Source: Candidatus Bathyarchaeota archaeon RBG_13_38_9 (GTDB lineage Archaea; Thermoproteota; Bathyarchaeia; 40CM-2-53-6; RBG-13-38-9). From it: a DNA stretch of 33,153 bases. Position numbers and translations under genes: made by a program. This document shows positions 165 to 30,977 of the stretch, piece after piece. The stretch's first letter is position 1. Each line of letters opens with the position of its first letter. The notes beneath the pieces are model-generated. The model made no database searches, was not told the DNA's origin, and saw nothing but the letters and a program-made list of their open reading frames with translations. The DNA is taken from contig MEZD01000001.1 of the NCBI GenBank assembly GCA_001775955.1, positions 75,197 through 108,349 on the forward strand. Direction: 5' to 3'.

Positions 165-2723
165 TTGTTGATGTATTTTCTGAGGTCTATTATGATATTC
201 ATCAAAAAGTCCAGTTTTATATATTCACTAGTCATCATCATGCTTTTGATATCTAGTTCCATCCTTTCAATTTCTTCAGTTTTGGCAATTGGGGGGTACA
301 CGTCAACAGCGCCAACAATCGATGGCGCTATCGGCAATATTGAGTGGCAGAATGCTCAAACAGTAGATATCGATTTTGGAGAACTTGACGGATTCCATTA
401 TATTGGAAAGCTCTACGCCATGAATGACCTTGACAATGTTTACATAGCATTCGAGATTGATGATCCTATTCCTGGCCAAGCTAGATTGACATTGATTTTT
501 GATTGTAGTACTCCTAGTGATGGAATAGCGGATGATGGTGTACGTTTTGAACAAATCACTGCGCAATATTCAGACTTAGACGCTGATCTAAATCCAGATG
601 GACATATAGACGGTGTAATGACATCAAATATTGGAGCCGACAGTAACTACTTTGAATTATCTAAACCCATAGGAGCACCCGATCCAGATGATTGTTTGTT
701 TCCGAAAAAACTATTTGTGATTTATCGCTCTGGCCCAAATGTATTTGAATCCACTGATTGGCAACACATCCAGCAGTCCATTCCACATGATTTTACATTC
801 GATATCCGACATCCAGAAAAGGTCTCGGTAAGCCAAAACACATTCATAACATTAGATGTCGATTTTACACTTCTCGAACCTGACCTCGCCTTCGATGCTG
901 ATTTGTTAATAATTGATATGGATGACGACAGCGTATTAGATAGCATATCACTGAACGTTTTTGAGAGTATGAATGTTACAGAAACATTTGAACTCATTGC
1001 ACCAGCAGCAGCACAAAGTTGGTCGTTAATGGGTAGAGTAGCAGCACATTATGAAGATGGTGGCCTAAGTATAGGTACTCCTTTCACCATTGAAGTTGTG
1101 GATGATCTCGAGATCGATCCTGAAGCTGAGGGTATATGTATCTGGGATGGTCCTCCACCTCCCGAAACCGCACCCCCTTCAGAACAAATTGAGATACCTA
1201 TAGAGGTCAAATATGCCGTGACATATGACGCCTGGATAGTCGCTGGAATATACGATGAAGAAGGCGCCCTCATATCATCAGTTGAATTTGATGAAACAGT
1301 AAGCGGCATAGGATCAAACGACTATATCTTCGAGGTTACTACTCCCGATACTGAAGGCCCTTGGAACGTCAAAGCCTCACTCTATTACGGACATGTCGCG
1401 GGCGTCGATTCAGTACATCAGGAATGTGATGAGTGGCCTTTCACACTCATAATCACTTCTGGAGTTCCCGGAGGAGAGGGAGTCAAAATAATTGATGTAA
1501 CATCCCCTGTCGAGGTCAACAGTGGAGATGAGGTACTAGTAAATGTCAATGTTGAGTATGAACTCCCATCAGGAGCCAAATACCATGCAAGGATTCTAGA
1601 CTCCACTTCTAGCTTAATCATTAAGACAAGCGATGAAATGACTGCGGCATCTCATGGATTCAAGACTTTCAGCTTCGATGGAATTTATGCGCCTTTCGTC
1701 TTAACAGATACAATTTTCACATTACGAGCAGTCGCAGAATACAAAACAGATGGTGCCTGGCAGATCCTCGATCCGGAAGGCCAAGAAGAGTTTGAGATCA
1801 AGGTTCTTGGAGTCTCAATATCTCCTGGTGATCTACCTGTAGGACCCCTAATCCCACCACTTCCTGTCCCACCTGACTCTTTGCCACCTACACCGGAAGA
1901 CTTCGACTTTACTCTGAGTTTAACTCCAGACTCTCAGGAAGCTTCACCAGGTCAGACAGTCATCTACGAAGTTGAATTACAGGGATCCATAGAAGTAACT
2001 CAACTGGTAACTTTAGGTGTCTCTGGTCAACCTATAGGATCCACTGTCAACATAATTCCACTTGCGGGAACACCAACATACTCGTCAACCTTAACCATCA
2101 CACTTGGCGACTCAGTCCAGCCTGAGTCTTACACTATAACCGTAAATGCTTCTGGAGGAGAAAAAACTCATTCACAATCTGCATCATTAGTCGTCAAATC
2201 ACCACCCGACTTCTCTATCTCAATCTCAACACCAGAAGTTACAGTTGAACGAGGGGAAAGCATATCTATTGACATCAACATCGAGCCGCTTCATGGCTTC
2301 AATACCCCAGTCAATTTGGCTGTGACAACCTCACCAAACGGTGTAGAAGTCAAACTTAATCCTGAATCTGAAACACCTTCATTCACATCAAGAATAAAGA
2401 TAACAGTAGAAAATGATATGGCTCCTGGAACGTATCCATTGATTATTATAGCCGAAGGCTCATCCCAAAAGAGCTCTCAAGTAATTTTGAATGTAGAAGC
2501 TCCAAGACAAACTGCTGTAGCAACTCAATCTCAGTTTCCCTATGGGATGCTTGCATTAATTGTCAGCATATTGCTTATTGTTGCGGCAATACTTGCTTTT
2601 AGACGAAGAAAAACTAAAGCGACAGTCCCACCCCAAGCACCGATGAAATTCTGTATAGAATGTAGGGCACAGATATCTATCGATACGTTACATTGTCCAA
2701 AGTGTGGTGTAAAACAACAATGA
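165..2723 (+). CDS. Large secreted/surface protein with signal peptide, Ig-like/CARDB-type repeats, C-terminal TM and cytoplasmic zinc ribbon
   Basis: 852 aa ORF; hydrophobic N-terminus, repeated Ig-like segments (DFTLSLTPDSQEASPGQT; DFSISISTPEVTVERGES), TM then RRRK and FCIEC...CPKC. Confidence 0.8.
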   Translation: MLMYFLRSIMIFIKKSSFIYSLVIIMLLISSSILSISSVLAIGGYTSTAPTIDGAIGNIEWQNAQTVDIDFGELDGFHYIGKLYAMNDLDNVYIAFEIDDPIPGQARLTLIFDCSTPSDGIADDGVRFEQITAQYSDLDADLNPDGHIDGVMTSNIGADSNYFELSKPIGAPDPDDCLFPKKLFVIYRSGPNVFESTDWQHIQQSIPHDFTFDIRHPEKVSVSQNTFITLDVDFTLLEPDLAFDADLLIIDMDDDSVLDSISLNVFESMNVTETFELIAPAAAQSWSLMGRVAAHYEDGGLSIGTPFTIEVVDDLEIDPEAEGICIWDGPPPPETAPPSEQIEIPIEVKYAVTYDAWIVAGIYDEEGALISSVEFDETVSGIGSNDYIFEVTTPDTEGPWNVKASLYYGHVAGVDSVHQECDEWPFTLIITSGVPGGEGVKIIDVTSPVEVNSGDEVLVNVNVEYELPSGAKYHARILDSTSSLIIKTSDEMTAASHGFKTFSFDGIYAPFVLTDTIFTLRAVAEYKTDGAWQILDPEGQEEFEIKVLGVSISPGDLPVGPLIPPLPVPPDSLPPTPEDFDFTLSLTPDSQEASPGQTVIYEVELQGSIEVTQLVTLGVSGQPIGSTVNIIPLAGTPTYSSTLTITLGDSVQPESYTITVNASGGEKTHSQSASLVVKSPPDFSISISTPEVTVERGESISIDINIEPLHGFNTPVNLAVTTSPNGVEVKLNPESETPSFTSRIKITVENDMAPGTYPLIIIAEGSSQKSSQVILNVEAPRQTAVATQSQFPYGMLALIVSILLIVAAILAFRRRKTKATVPPQAPMKFCIECRAQISIDTLHCPKCGVKQQ

Positions 2724-15591: not shown

Positions 15592-16695
15592 TCATCCTTG
15601 GCAGATATTCAAGGAGTCTGCTTTGAATTGGACATATACCTTTTTCCCTTTATTTATACACAAATCTTTAAAAGAACTCAATGTTAATTCTGACTCAATT
15701 AGAAAGCCTACATCCACCGAAACCTTTGCACTAGACTTCATCTGAACAATGCCAGATACCTTTCCTGTCAGATTGTTACAGACGCATCCACACCATTTCG
15801 GATTTCTAATTAATGATTCATTTGATAGGATGATATCTTCTGGTTTGATTGTAAGAATAATTTTTTCTCCATCTCCTTTTCCAATCACTGGCGCTAAGAT
15901 TTCTATGTTACCTATTTTGACTTTAGCGGGACTTGACGCAGCTTGAACTATTGTTCCATCATATACGTTTAGTCCGAGGAAGTTGGCCACATATTTGGAG
16001 TTTGGCTTCTCTAATATCTCGTCACGGTTACCTATCTGTTCTACGACACCTTCACCCATCACAGCTATCCTGTCAGAGATTGTGCATGCCTCAGCTAAAT
16101 CATGTGTTACATATATTGACGTTACTTCGAGAGGTTCTAAAAGATTCTTAAAATCGGTTCTTATACTCTCTCGAGTTTTCGGATCTAATGCGGACAGAGG
16201 TTCATCAAGAAGCAGAAGTGTAGGATCAATTGCTAAAGCTCTGGCCAAGGCTACGCGCTGCTGCTGACCTCCACTAAGCTCATGCGGATAACATTGGGTA
16301 CAATCTTTCAATCCTATAAAGTCTAGAAGTGAATTGATTTTTTTCTTAATCTCATGTCTTGGCAGATGTTTAGCTTTCAATCCGTATGATATATTTTCAT
16401 CAACTCGCATGTGAGGGAATAATGAATAATTTTGAAAGACATAACCTATCCCTCTATCTGAGGGACTAACATGGATTCTTTTACTTCCCTTTTTTCCATC
16501 AACAAGAATTTTGTTAATGTAAATTTCTCCCTCATCGGGTGAACACAAACCAGATATTATGTTCAGCATAGTAGTCTTGCCACAGCCGCTTGGTCCAACT
16601 ATTGATAGAAGCTCATTCGTTTGAACTTGTAAAGTGACATTTCTAAGAACTTCTTTATCTGAAAATCGTTTTTTTATTGTTTTAAGTTCTATCAT
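15592..16695 (-). CDS. ABC transporter ATP-binding protein, molybdate/tungstate/sulfate type with C-terminal TOBE-like region
   Basis: Walker A GPSGCGKTT, signature LSGGQQQR, Walker B LLLLDEPLSALD. Confidence 0.88.
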   Translation of the reverse strand: MIELKTIKKRFSDKEVLRNVTLQVQTNELLSIVGPSGCGKTTMLNIISGLCSPDEGEIYINKILVDGKKGSKRIHVSPSDRGIGYVFQNYSLFPHMRVDENISYGLKAKHLPRHEIKKKINSLLDFIGLKDCTQCYPHELSGGQQQRVALARALAIDPTLLLLDEPLSALDPKTRESIRTDFKNLLEPLEVTSIYVTHDLAEACTISDRIAVMGEGVVEQIGNRDEILEKPNSKYVANFLGLNVYDGTIVQAASSPAKVKIGNIEILAPVIGKGDGEKIILTIKPEDIILSNESLIRNPKWCGCVCNNLTGKVSGIVQMKSSAKVSVDVGFLIESELTLSSFKDLCINKGKKVYVQFKADSLNICQG

Positions 16696-17501
16696 AGTCT
16701 TGCCCCGTATCGTTTTCGGCCAAGTATTTTGAACAGTGCGAGAACTCCAAATGATACTACTATAAGGATTGCTGATAGGACATTTGATGCCATAGGATCT
16801 TCAGCCATTAACATGTAAATGGCTAACGGCATAGTTTGTGTTACACCTGGAAGATTACCTGCAAACATTAATGTTGCACCAAATTCCCCCATCGATCTGG
16901 CCCATGTCATTATGGTACCAGCTAAAAGTCCGTGTGAAGAGAGAGGAAGAGTTATTGTAAGAAAAACTCTTAATCTTGAAGGGTTCAATATTTTTGCGCT
17001 ATTAACTAAATTCCTGTCAACGTTCTCAAATGCTGCCTTAGCTGATCGTATTAGAAAGGGTGAAGCAACAAAGATTTGAGCCAAGACGACAGCGAGGGTA
17101 CTGCCTGGTAGAATTATTCCAAATTCTTTGAGTGTAGGTCCGATTATTCCTCTTGGGGCAAAAGCTAGCAGTAAAGCTACTCCCGCAACTGCTGGTGGAA
17201 GGACTATTGGGATATCAAGTACAGTATCAATAATTGATCTACCATGAAATCTCCTAGTTGCAAGTAAATATGCAGTGGGTATACCAAAGATAAAGGAAGT
17301 GAGAGTAGCAAAGGATGAAGTTACTATGCTTACAGTTAAAGCGCTTAAAACCTGCGGGTTTCTTAATTGAGGCATCAACATATCCAAATCTAGATTCAAG
17401 AAGACCGCAGCAATTGGAAATGAGATGAATGCAATGAAAAAAAGACATGCGAATGCTAATAATATTATAATTAATCTATCAGAAACCCGCTCGAGACCCA
17501 T
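16692..17501 (-). CDS. ABC transporter permease, ModB/WtpB/CysT type
   Basis: EFGATLMFAGN and PPAVAGVALLLAF; ATG at 17501 overlaps an upstream TAA (TAATG), so the track start at 17540 is likely too early. Confidence 0.85.
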   Translation of the reverse strand: MGLERVSDRLIIILLAFACLFFIAFISFPIAAVFLNLDLDMLMPQLRNPQVLSALTVSIVTSSFATLTSFIFGIPTAYLLATRRFHGRSIIDTVLDIPIVLPPAVAGVALLLAFAPRGIIGPTLKEFGIILPGSTLAVVLAQIFVASPFLIRSAKAAFENVDRNLVNSAKILNPSRLRVFLTITLPLSSHGLLAGTIMTWARSMGEFGATLMFAGNLPGVTQTMPLAIYMLMAEDPMASNVLSAILIVVSFGVLALFKILGRKRYGARL

Positions 17502-17623
17502 TACGAATAACCCTCCATTCTTGTAGCGAACTCCTTGCACTCATCGGATAGAATAAATTCAACAAATTTGACTGCTAATAGTGCACGCCAGAGTCTAGTC
17601 TCAAAGAATATATAATGCTTATC
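17501..17623 (-). pseudogene. C-terminal remnant of an ABC substrate-binding protein
   Basis: Open frame DKHYIFFETRLWRALLAVKFVEFILSDECKEFATRMEGYS* immediately upstream of the permease, stop overlapping the permease ATG. Confidence 0.6.
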
Positions 17624-18949: not shown

Positions 18950-20326
18950 TTGACAAATGTCTTAGTAATGCTTATTCAAGAGAAATCAATTGCAAATTTA
19001 TTGGACAACATGCTCATTGCTCTTACATTCCCTTGGGCTAAGTCGAGAAACTATAGTCTGAGTGCTTTAATAGGGTCAATTGAAATCGATTCTGAACTAA
19101 CAGATATTGAAATAATAATTGTTAACGGTAGTTTAAAGACATCAATCGAACGGATCTCTAAAAAATTTGATAAGATAATAATTTGCATTTCGTTTATGAC
19201 CCCTGATCTCAAACATATTAGAAATGAAATAGACAGTCTTAGTTCCCTTCAGAATCCAATCCGGAAAAAACTTATTCTAATAGCTGGCGGACCACATCCA
19301 ACAGGTGATCCTTTAGGAACTCTGAAGATGGGTTTTGATATAATCGTAATTGGAGAAGGAGAAAAAACACTAAGGAAAATAATTTCCAAAATAAAAAATA
19401 ATGATTCTATAGAAGATTTGAAAGGTTTAGCCTATCAGAAAAATCATCAAACATTCATAAAAAAATCCAATGACTGGATCAACCTTGACGACTTTCCAGC
19501 TTTTGCACCTTTGCATCGTCTATTTTCCCCAATTGAAATATCTCGCGGATGCCCTTTCGTTTGCAATTTTTGTCAGACGCCTAGAATTCATGGTGGTTCA
19601 ATGCGTCATAGAAGCATTTCTAACATCTGTCGACACTTGAGATATGCATCTAAGATAGGAAAGAAGAATACATGGTTCATTTCTTCCAATGCCTTTGCAT
19701 ATGGTTCATTTGATGGTAAAAAAACTAATGAAACAGCAATAGAAGATCTGCTGAGATCAATAAGAAAAATCCCGAGTATGGAAAAAATATTTTTTGGTAC
19801 TTTTCCATCTGAAGTACGACCCGAATTTGTTACAGATGACCTTGTTTCACTGATTATCGAATACTGTACCAATAGAACTCTCTCGATAGGCGCTCAATCA
19901 GGAAGTGATCGAATTTTGGAATTCATTCATAGAGAACATACTGTGGAAGAGATAATGAATTCCATTGAAATTGTAAAAAAATATGGGATAATTCCATATG
20001 TCGATATTATTTTTGGTCTGCCATCAGAGAATGATGAAGACAGAGCGAGGACAAGGGAATTAATGAAATTTGTGATTGATAAAGGGGGAATAATCCATTC
20101 TCATGTTTTCATTCCGCTACCAGGAACACCATTTCAGAGATTCCCTCCAGGAAGAATTACCATCGAAGATAGGAATTATATCCAAAAACTAACCGCAACG
20201 GGAAAAGCGAATGGTTCATGGCAGCATCAGATGAGAATTGGTGAAGAAATTGATTCAGTGTTTCAGAAAAAGCGCGCGCTAAGAAGAAAATCTTCTGATG
20301 ATTCAAACATATTCAGATTGATGTAG
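18950..20326 (+). CDS. B12-binding/radical SAM domain protein (MJ1487-like)
   Basis: SRGCPFVCNFCQTP (CxxxCxxC); N-terminal B12-binding-like GGPHPTGDPLGTLKMGFDIIVIGEGE; TTG start. Confidence 0.85.
   Translation: MTNVLVMLIQEKSIANLLDNMLIALTFPWAKSRNYSLSALIGSIEIDSELTDIEIIIVNGSLKTSIERISKKFDKIIICISFMTPDLKHIRNEIDSLSSLQNPIRKKLILIAGGPHPTGDPLGTLKMGFDIIVIGEGEKTLRKIISKIKNNDSIEDLKGLAYQKNHQTFIKKSNDWINLDDFPAFAPLHRLFSPIEISRGCPFVCNFCQTPRIHGGSMRHRSISNICRHLRYASKIGKKNTWFISSNAFAYGSFDGKKTNETAIEDLLRSIRKIPSMEKIFFGTFPSEVRPEFVTDDLVSLIIEYCTNRTLSIGAQSGSDRILEFIHREHTVEEIMNSIEIVKKYGIIPYVDIIFGLPSENDEDRARTRELMKFVIDKGGIIHSHVFIPLPGTPFQRFPPGRITIEDRNYIQKLTATGKANGSWQHQMRIGEEIDSVFQKKRALRRKSSDDSNIFRLM
20271..20280. repeat. Palindrome AGCGCGCGCT, copy 2 (inside radical SAM CDS)
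   Basis: Exact 10-bp match. Confidence 0.85.
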
Positions 20327-29235: not shown

Positions 29236-30312
29236 TTAGACTGTTAATGTTAGAGCTCCTGTGGGACATTGAGAAACACATGCTTCACAAGTTACACAGT
29301 TTCCGGGATATTTATTTAACATCTTTTTGTGTTCCTCCACCATTTCAAATACTCCTTTGGGACAGATGTCATAACACATGCCACATTTAGTACATTTAGA
29401 TTGGTCAAGAACTATCGTGCTATTTACTATCTTTGATCTACCGCCGAACTTTATGTTTCCAAGTTTCTGAATTCCTATCTTGACTAATATTGGGTCAAAT
29501 TGGCTTTTTTGTAATGGAGTTGCTCCATCAAAATCAATTCCTATTATTAGGATTAAACCCATGGCTATGAATAGAAGATTCTGGATATACTTGGTTTGGT
29601 TGATAGCTAGAAAGTTGAAGGAGATAACTCCGATTACTATTAGAATTTCCAAAAACAGTATTTTCCGCCATCCTGATTTTCCAGGAATGAATGGTTGCAG
29701 ACCATACATTAGGAATATCAAACCCCAGCCTAACAGAATGACCTCAGCAAACCAATCCTTCGAGAAAAATTCTATGATTATTAAAACAAAGATTAGGAAA
29801 GTCGTGGATATACCAAGGCCGACGTCAATTCGATCAATAAAAGGCCATCTTACTCTGCGCATTTTGTCCGTTTTCTTGAGTCCATCGTTCACATATTCTG
29901 GTATATCCTGTGCATATACAGGACCGAACTTGCAATCCCATCCTGTTTCTTTCTTTACAAGTTTAACATCAATTCCAGCAGCTGAAAGCTGAGGTAATAT
30001 TAAAATTCGATGTTCAACTTTCTCATCGATATTAGAAGTCTTGACTACTGGGATTATAGAATGAGCTGTAAAATTGGATCCTCTTGCAGCGCACCAAACA
30101 TTGATACCATTTGTTGGCACTACTAGCAGATAACAATCCTGATTTTTGAGATATTGAGTTAATCTCTTTACTGTGAGATCAAAATTAGCTGTGACGAAGA
30201 CTGGACTATTTTTATTTGGATTTCCAAAAATTCTTACTCCGGGTTCTACAGAAAGTGGCATTAGACGAAAAAAGGTTCCAAAAAATGTTCTTAAAATCTC
30301 TTTGAACTTCAA
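29236..30312 (-). CDS. HgcA-HgcB-like fusion: corrinoid-binding domain, TM region, C-terminal 2x[4Fe-4S] ferredoxin
   Basis: GNPNKNSPVFVTANFDLTVKRL, NGINVWCAARGS cap motif, RILILPQLSAAGIDVKLVKKETGWDCKFGPVYAQDIPEYV, several TMs, CTKCGMCYDICP and CVTCEACVSQCP. Confidence 0.85.
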   Translation of the reverse strand: MKFKEILRTFFGTFFRLMPLSVEPGVRIFGNPNKNSPVFVTANFDLTVKRLTQYLKNQDCYLLVVPTNGINVWCAARGSNFTAHSIIPVVKTSNIDEKVEHRILILPQLSAAGIDVKLVKKETGWDCKFGPVYAQDIPEYVNDGLKKTDKMRRVRWPFIDRIDVGLGISTTFLIFVLIIIEFFSKDWFAEVILLGWGLIFLMYGLQPFIPGKSGWRKILFLEILIVIGVISFNFLAINQTKYIQNLLFIAMGLILIIGIDFDGATPLQKSQFDPILVKIGIQKLGNIKFGGRSKIVNSTIVLDQSKCTKCGMCYDICPKGVFEMVEEHKKMLNKYPGNCVTCEACVSQCPTGALTLTV

Positions 30313-30317
30313 TCTGA

Positions 30318-30977
30318 TTACTCCTTTTGGCCAACAAATAATGCGAATGAATCGATGAAGCTTCTCCGTTCACAAATAATTTTGAACCCTGCATTCGTCA
30401 TTGGGCCTTTGATGTCTTCTAATGTTTTAGTTGAAGTCTGAGTGAGAAGATAGGTTATTAGTGCTAAGGGAATTCGTATTGATGAGTGTACTATATGTTT
30501 CCATGATGATCGAGGTTTTACCTCATCCGCAATTATGATTAATCCATTAGGTCTTAGTATTCGATAGGCTTGACTTAATACATATTTTTGTTCATCAGCG
30601 TATAACTCACTAAAAACTAATGTACTGACAATTCTATCGAATGTATTGTCATTGAATGCTTTTTCCATTTCGATGGCACCCATTTCTTCAAGTTGAATTT
30701 TTTCAATCAAATTGTGTTCCCGAACTTTTCGTTCTGCTATTGCTAACATTTGACTTGATTTATCGAATGCAACTACTGATGCTCCTTTCTTAGCACAGGA
30801 TATTGCCAAGGTTCCAGTGCCACAGCCAATTTCTAGGACTTTATTACTTTCATGAACATATTCTTCAACGATCTCTTGCTGCATTCTCCTGTCTTGTCCG
30901 AAAGATATCAAATTTATTCCCATATCGTACCGTTGGGGTGCCGATTCTAGGATTTTCATAAAAACGTAGCTTGCCAT
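30318..30977 (-). CDS. Class I SAM-dependent methyltransferase
   Basis: VLEIGCGTGTLAISCAKKGASVVAFDKS; FDRIVSTLVFSEL; ILRPNGLIIIADE; ends 5 bp before the HgcA-like ORF. Confidence 0.88.
   Translation of the reverse strand: MASYVFMKILESAPQRYDMGINLISFGQDRRMQQEIVEEYVHESNKVLEIGCGTGTLAISCAKKGASVVAFDKSSQMLAIAERKVREHNLIEKIQLEEMGAIEMEKAFNDNTFDRIVSTLVFSELYADEQKYVLSQAYRILRPNGLIIIADEVKPRSSWKHIVHSSIRIPLALITYLLTQTSTKTLEDIKGPMTNAGFKIICERRSFIDSFALFVGQKE

What the first reader, a model, noticed from the sequence alone, without database searches (positions are those of the whole stretch)
29236..30312. Single-chain HgcA-HgcB-like protein with a variant cap motif (NVWCAARG)
The protein reads collinearly as HgcA (mercury-methylation corrinoid protein): VTANFDLTVKRL, GINVWCAA, LILPQLSAAGI, KKETGWDCKFGPVYAQDIP, then several TMs. 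It continues in one chain into a dicluster ferredoxin resembling HgcB (CTKCGMCYDICP...CVTCEACVSQCP). Canonical HgcA and HgcB are separate proteins and the cap helix is normally N(V/I)WCA(A/S)GK; here GK is replaced by RG after the presumed Co-ligating Cys74 (30079-30102). From memory, fused HgcAB-like proteins have been noted in a few archaea and their mercury-methylating ability is doubtful. This could be a Hg methylator, or a corrinoid methyl-transfer/redox enzyme of unknown substrate.
Basis: partly seen in the sequence, partly recalled or inferred. Interest (0 to 1): 0.85.

Follow-up and report, generated by a model that had tools for sequence, protein, structure and literature searches.

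The report
Fused HgcAB-like corrinoid protein with CpaM
This archaeal gene encodes a membrane vitamin-B12 protein related to the mercury-methylating pair HgcA/HgcB but joined into one chain and lacking the thiols that handle mercury; it sits in an operon with a SAM methyltransferase (CpaM) that probably loads its methyl group, so it is a known but uncharacterised relative of the mercury methylators, not an expected mercury methylator.

Summary
ORF 29236-30312(-), 358 aa, is a collinear HgcA-type corrinoid domain, membrane domain and dicluster ferredoxin in one chain. It belongs to an already catalogued family (NCBIfam NF043039 'HgcAB-like fusion protein', 390 bits, cut-off 285) and fails the curated cut-offs for HgcA, HgcB and the acetyl-CoA-pathway corrinoid protein. 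The variant cap (NVWCAARG) is normal for this group. Among 260 Bathyarchaeia genomes CpaM and the fused protein pass their cut-offs in the same four, always adjacent; the pair is also adjacent in another archaeal class. In one Bathyarchaeon (G097) a CpaM-type domain is itself fused to HgcA in a 547-aa chain. The fused proteins have four, not five, membrane helices and lack HgcB's Cys73 and C-terminal cysteines, which mercury methylation needs; two cultured organisms with fused HgcAB make no methylmercury (literature). Best reading: CpaM methylates the Cys74-held cob(I)alamin from SAM, the ferredoxin keeps cobalt reduced, and the methyl goes to an unknown acceptor, probably not mercury. Family known; I found no paper reporting a CpaM-HgcA fusion.

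The parts
29236..30312 (-). hgcAB-like fusion gene, 358 aa, TTG start
   Evidence: NCBIfam NF043039, 390 bits over the 285-bit cut-off
29818..30312 (-). N-terminal corrinoid-binding domain (about residues 1-165)
   Evidence: Pfam CdhD residues 18-140; aligned to CFeSP gamma 316-439 in PDB 2h9a
30079..30102 (-). cap motif NVWCAARG (residues 71-78); Cys74 codon 30091-30093, inferred lower axial cobalt ligand
   Evidence: sequence; Cys74 aligned with Thr374 of CFeSP gamma; Cys present in 7 of 7 HgcA-type and 0 of 27 CFeSP gamma domains
29521..29829 (-). membrane domain, four predicted transmembrane helices (residues 162-264)
   Evidence: hydropathy, two scales
29362..29394 (-). first 4Fe-4S motif CTKCGMCYDIC (residues 307-317)
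29266..29298 (-). second 4Fe-4S motif CVTCEACVSQC (residues 339-349); chain ends 9 residues later with no further Cys
30318..30977 (-). cpaM, class I SAM-dependent methyltransferase, 219 aa, upstream partner in the same presumed operon
   Evidence: NCBIfam NF043040 'corrinoid protein-associated methyltransferase CpaM', 291 bits over the 180-bit cut-off
30321..30326 (-). Shine-Dalgarno-like AAGGAG of the fusion gene, inside the 3' end of cpaM, 8 bases before the TTG start
   Evidence: sequence

Best explanation
cpaM and hgcAB-like form a two-gene operon for a membrane-bound corrinoid methyl-transfer system. Inferred cycle: (1) the C-terminal two-cluster ferredoxin reduces the corrinoid held by the N-terminal domain to cob(I)alamin; (2) CpaM delivers a methyl group from SAM to that cobalt, giving a methylcob(III)alamin with Cys74 as lower ligand; (3) the Cys-on methyl-cobalt passes the methyl group to an acceptor. 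The acceptor is unknown and probably not mercury, because the thiols thought to bring Hg(II) to, and take methylmercury from, canonical HgcAB are missing. Shown here: domain anatomy, family, gene order, co-occurrence and the CpaM-HgcA fusion in a relative. Inferred: the SAM-to-cobalt direction of transfer, Cys74 ligation, and the non-mercury acceptor.
For: HgcAB-like family match. CpaM 5 bp upstream with the ribosome-binding site of hgcAB inside cpaM; the genes overlap in G499 and are 5 bp apart in G005. In 260 Bathyarchaeia, HgcAB-like and CpaM are over cut-off in the same 4 genomes. G499 in another class of the phylum has both, adjacent. Both proteins share the same kinship pattern: G005 is nearest G499 in HgcAB-like (53%) and in CpaM (50%), although the window genome is in G005's own family, so the pair travels together. 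G097: CpaM-type domain (118 bits) and HgcA domain (174 bits) in one 547-aa ORF, order as in the operon, followed by a separate HgcB-like gene; contig GC 33.3% against 32.7% for ten other contigs of that genome. CpaM has no Cys conserved across the sequences read, which argues against an ArsM-type thiol-bound metalloid site. SAM is the methyl donor to cobalt in canonical HgcAB (PMC11588087). No Cys after the second ferredoxin motif in 5 of 5 fused proteins, against 4 in G097 HgcB and 3 in G122 HgcB; HgcB Cys73 and at least one tail Cys are needed for full Hg methylation (PMC7305189). Cultures with fused hgcAB made no methylmercury: M. methylutens and P. furiosus (PMC5893877).
Against: Purified canonical HgcAB takes methyl from SAM without a separate methyltransferase, more than 50 times faster than free cobalamin does (PMC11588087), so CpaM may not be needed for that step. 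CpaM could instead methylate the product or a substrate. G571 has a CpaM gene without any HgcA-type domain, though that CpaM is frameshifted and next to a transposase-like fragment. The G097 fusion rests on one 2.9-kb contig and its CpaM domain is below the curated cut-off. Acceptor unknown. No reliable structure.
Confidence: 0.5

Rival explanations
1. It is a genuine mercury methylator: HgcA and HgcB activities simply fused, working as in canonical HgcAB.
For: Same domains in the same order, Cys cap conserved; HgcA domain clades with canonical HgcA against CFeSP (100/100).
Against: Below HgcA and HgcB curated cut-offs; Cys73 and tail Cys absent, fifth membrane helix absent; GK of the cap absent; two cultured organisms with fused genes did not methylate Hg (PMC5893877; PMC7319479).
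Confidence: 0.1
2. CpaM does not load the cobalt; it makes or finishes a small molecule, and HgcAB-like performs another methylation of the same molecule (for example a lipid or cofactor). HgcAB-like takes methyl directly from SAM, as canonical HgcAB does.
For: Canonical HgcAB uses SAM unaided (PMC11588087). CpaM's next-best family matches are UbiE/MenG-type quinone methyltransferases (84 bits), which act on small molecules.
Against: A CpaM-HgcA single chain and the strict pairing favour a direct protein partner; no neighbouring pathway genes are visibly shared between the window, G005 and G499 beyond the pair (by inspection).
Confidence: 0.27
3. It detoxifies or volatilises a metal(loid) other than mercury (As, Sb, Se, Te, Sn) by corrinoid methyl transfer.
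For: Canonical HgcAB in the Bathyarchaeon G122 sits beside arsenic genes ArsN2 and an ArsA-type ATPase and a PadR-type regulator; the G005 cassette follows an HxlR-type regulator.
Against: No metal or metalloid resistance gene turned up among the window proteins searched near the gene; CpaM lacks conserved Cys.
Confidence: 0.1
4. It is a Wood-Ljungdahl accessory: a spare CFeSP-like methyl carrier for acetyl-CoA synthesis.
For: Homology to the CFeSP gamma C-terminal domain.
Against: The genome has a separate CODH/ACS operon with its own delta and gamma subunits (G000:C9, read by inspection); all HgcA-type domains clade apart from 27 CFeSP gamma domains; the Cys cap is absent from CFeSP; the gamma NCBIfam cut-off is not met (93 vs 306 bits).
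Confidence: 0.03

Closest known systems
NCBIfam NF043039 HgcAB-like fusion protein (fused proteins of Pyrococcus furiosus, Methanococcoides methylutens, Kosmotoga pacifica and Atribacteria in the literature)
   Same: Full-length match over the curated cut-off; one chain; Cys cap; dicluster ferredoxin; profile ends just after the second cluster motif, as this protein does
   Different: Nothing that sets it outside the family; about 35% identical to the G005 and G499 members read here
NCBIfam NF043040 CpaM
   Same: Upstream gene passes the cut-off (291 vs 180 bits) and is adjacent to a corrinoid protein, as the name says
   Different: In G097 a CpaM-type domain (118 bits, below the cut-off) is fused to an HgcA domain
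HgcA (NF040863) and HgcB (NF040864), mercury methylation pair
   Same: Corrinoid domain, membrane domain, two-cluster ferredoxin, cap Cys
   Different: One chain; four instead of five membrane helices; no Cys73 or tail Cys; cap GK replaced by RG; scores below both cut-offs
Corrinoid iron-sulfur protein gamma subunit (CdhE/AcsC), PDB 2h9a and 4djd
   Same: C-terminal corrin-binding domain, about 30-43% identity in blastp hits
   Different: No Cys at the lower-face position; two further N-terminal domains; soluble; encoded elsewhere in this genome

Membership tests
HgcAB-like fusion protein (NF043039) | Whole-protein score over curated 285 bits | tested here: met
   390 bits, residues 8-354 onto 2-349 of 350
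HgcAB-like fusion protein (NF043039) | Corrinoid domain, membrane domain and dicluster ferredoxin in one open frame | tested here: met
   358-aa ORF without stop, conserved in orthologues
HgcAB-like fusion protein (NF043039) | Adjacent CpaM | tested here: met
   NF043040 291 bits, 5 bp upstream; adjacent in 5 of 5 genomes read
HgcA, mercury methylation corrinoid protein | NF040863 score over 275 bits | tested here: not met
   168 bits; control G122 HgcA gives 420
HgcA, mercury methylation corrinoid protein | Cap motif NVWCA(A/G/S)GK | tested here: not met
   NVWCAARG; Cys kept, GK not (motif from PMC7536318)
HgcA, mercury methylation corrinoid protein | Five transmembrane helices | tested here: not met
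   Four by two hydropathy scales; on the GES scale G122 and G097 HgcA show five
HgcB, mercury methylation ferredoxin | NF040864 score over 99 bits | tested here: not met
   48 bits; control G122 HgcB 116
HgcB, mercury methylation ferredoxin | Cys73 about 12 residues after the second cluster motif and C-terminal Cys | tested here: not met
   No Cys after the second motif; chain ends after 9 residues (requirement from PMC7305189)
HgcB, mercury methylation ferredoxin | Two CxxCxxCxxxC(P) motifs | tested here: met
   Residues 307-317 and 339-349
Mercury methylator (function) | Methylmercury formation | not testable with these tools
   Needs an assay; literature negatives for two fused homologues (PMC5893877)
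CFeSP gamma subunit | Score over NF003195 cut-off 306 bits and full domain set | tested here: not met
   93 bits, only the last 125 profile positions
ArsM arsenite methyltransferase (for the CpaM partner) | Conserved substrate-binding cysteines | tested here: not met
   No Cys column conserved in seven CpaM-type sequences

The most novel reading that the evidence does not exclude
cpaM-hgcA-hgcB was an ancestral operon whose genes fused in different ways (A+B in the window, CpaM+A in G097), and CpaM is a dedicated SAM:cob(I)alamin methyltransferase of HgcA-type proteins. The original job of the HgcA lineage would then be SAM-driven corrinoid methylation of something other than mercury, mercury methylation being a property of the members that have HgcB's Cys73 and tail thiols.
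Probability: 0.25. Interest if true: 0.85.

Novelty: new member of a known kind. Interest (0 to 1): 0.5.

Why it matters
The native function of HgcA-type proteins, and what separates mercury methylators from look-alikes in metagenomes, are open questions. This locus should not be counted as a mercury-methylation gene. Its partner CpaM, and above all the CpaM-HgcA chain in G097, give a concrete way to test how HgcA-type cobalt is methylated from SAM and what the non-mercury members act on.

Tried and rejected
Structure prediction of the fused protein and of CpaM from three near-identical sequences: both useless (mean pLDDT about 33), so no fold search was run and no cobalamin position could be modelled. 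Three scans of viral contigs gave no answer from the server. No relative on plasmids. The genome-contig scan with one protein found only two close orthologues, so bacterial and euryarchaeal fused proteins were not read here and are cited from papers. Rejected: CFeSP or Wood-Ljungdahl subunit; ArsM-type role for CpaM; assembly artefact of the fusion (orthologues). A first alignment row for G097 was a poor fragment and was not used. The placement of G097 and G122 as sisters in the tree (86/58) is flagged as possible long-branch attraction and not relied on. Podar et al. 2015 and Haft and Gwadz 2023 are not in the library.

Full report
What is there. The ORF at 29236-30312 on the minus strand is intact, 358 codons from a TTG start. 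The upstream gene (30318-30977, minus) ends five bases before it, and an AAGGAG ribosome-binding site for the fusion gene sits at the very end of that gene, eight bases before the TTG. Downstream is a convergent alanyl-tRNA editing protein AlaXM, so the operon ends with the fusion gene; upstream of the methyltransferase there is a gap of about 270 bases to the next large ORF. The genome is a Bathyarchaeia-type assembly of 1.72 Mb, 75% complete; two close relatives are titled Candidatus Bathyarchaeota and carry 94% and 90% identical copies.

Family. NCBIfam places the protein in NF043039, HgcAB-like fusion protein, 390 bits against a cut-off of 285. HgcA (NF040863) gives 168 bits against 275, HgcB (NF040864) 48 against 99, CFeSP gamma (NF003195) 93 against 306. 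As a control, the Bathyarchaeon G122 encodes a canonical pair that passes both HgcA (420 bits) and HgcB (116 bits).

Cobalt ligand. phmmer against the PDB aligns residues 18-141 with CFeSP gamma 316-439 and puts Cys74 on Thr374 of 2h9a (position counted from the printed alignment). In an alignment of the corrin domain all seven HgcA-type proteins read here have Cys at this column, and none of 27 CFeSP gamma domains does; the seven form a clade with 100/100 support against those 27. Cys-on cobalt is established for canonical HgcA (PMC11588087, PMC7305189). Here it is inferred by homology. The cap reads NVWCAARG in the window and its two close relatives, NVWCAATG in G005, NVWCAAAG in G499 and NVWCAARG in G097, against NVWCAAGK in G122. 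The loss of GK is therefore a group feature, not a peculiarity of this gene.

Membrane topology. Hydropathy gives four helices in each fused protein tested and, on the GES scale, five in the HgcA of G122 and G097. With the corrin domain inside the cell, five helices would put the C terminus outside, so a fused ferredoxin can stay inside only if one helix is lost. The fusion appears to have replaced the fifth helix. This is a deduction from hydropathy, not a measured topology.

Mercury-handling thiols. In HgcB, Cys73 is essential and at least one tail cysteine is needed for full activity (PMC7305189). None of the five fused proteins has a Cys after the second cluster motif; the HgcB of G097 has four and that of G122 three. 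In culture, Methanococcoides methylutens with a fused gene pair made no methylmercury, and Pyrococcus furiosus was the first such case (PMC5893877; also PMC7319479). So a mercury-methylator reading of the window gene is unlikely, though untested here.

The partner. The upstream protein is CpaM, corrinoid protein-associated methyltransferase (NF043040, 291 bits, cut-off 180), a class I SAM methyltransferase with UbiE/MenG-type proteins as next-best families. Among 260 Bathyarchaeia genomes the fused protein is over its cut-off in four (G000, G001, G002, G005) and CpaM in the same four. Three of these are one genus, so this is two independent genera rather than four events. In an even sample of 401 genomes of the phylum, CpaM over the cut-off occurs in three: the window genome, G499 and G571. 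G499, from another class, has CpaM directly followed by the fused gene; the gene is split over two contigs that overlap by 123 identical bases. G571 has a frameshifted CpaM next to a transposase-like fragment on a 2.7-kb contig and no HgcA-type domain found in the genome, best read as a remnant. For both proteins G005 is closest to G499 (53% and 50%) rather than to the window genome of its own family (35% and 42%), so the pair has moved as a unit.

A natural CpaM-HgcA chain. In the Bathyarchaeon G097 one open frame of 547 codons (L041:1046-2689, minus) carries a CpaM-type domain (residues 1-204, 118 bits, below the cut-off but far above the next methyltransferase family at 44) and an HgcA domain (174 bits HgcA, 179 bits HgcAB-like). 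A separate HgcB-like gene follows with cysteines at the Cys73 position and in the tail. The order is that of the operon. The contig's GC content (33.3%) fits the genome sample (32.7%). Such a chain is the strongest sign that CpaM acts directly on the HgcA corrinoid. It rests on one short contig of a metagenome assembly.

How it most likely works. In purified canonical HgcAB, SAM methylates cob(I)alamin and methyl-THF does not (PMC11588087). I infer that in this family CpaM carries out or improves that step, the ferredoxin re-reduces cobalt, and Cys74-ligated methylcobalamin hands the methyl on to an unknown acceptor. Against this, canonical HgcAB needs no CpaM, so CpaM may act on a small molecule instead. 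CpaM has no Cys conserved across the sequences read, so an ArsM-like thiol-bound metalloid site is unlikely. The same genome has its own CODH/ACS operon with both CFeSP subunits (G000:C9), so a Wood-Ljungdahl role is not needed.

Novelty. The fused family and, by its name, the CpaM association are already in NCBIfam. Searching the open-access library found no paper on CpaM with HgcA and none focused on Bathyarchaeia HgcA; that library lacks many journals. The window locus is a new member of a known kind. The CpaM-HgcA chain in G097 is the part a specialist is least likely to know.

Noticed in passing
L041:1046-2689 (-), genome G097: Single 547-aa ORF with a CpaM-type SAM methyltransferase domain fused to an HgcA domain (cap NVWCAARG), followed at 701-1015 (-) by an HgcB-like protein with a Cys73-like residue and a C-terminal Cys pair.
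   Followed up: partly
L044:8895-12761, genome G122: Canonical split hgcA-hgcB in a Bathyarchaeon beside ArsN2, an ArsA-type ATPase, a thioredoxin-like protein and a PadR-type regulator, with no CpaM next to it; a candidate true mercury methylator in this class.
   Followed up: partly
L043:6701-7867 (+), genome G005: In this fused protein the first cluster motif is CKGAGFCEQIC, missing the second Cys, with an extra Cys just after the motif; the cluster may differ in type.
   Followed up: no
L065:1493-2065 (+), genome G571: Frameshifted cpaM followed by a transposase-like fragment and no HgcA-type domain found in the genome: probable decay of the cassette.
   Followed up: partly
window 18950-20326 (+): B12-binding/radical SAM protein of family TIGR04013 (456 bits), another probable corrinoid enzyme about 9 kb from the fused gene.
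   Followed up: no
window 15592-17540 (-): Molybdate/tungstate-type ABC transporter ATPase and permease genes, overlapping by four bases.
   Followed up: no
L049:14690-15757 (genome G000:C9): A stretch reads as a run of N in the held genome.
   Followed up: no
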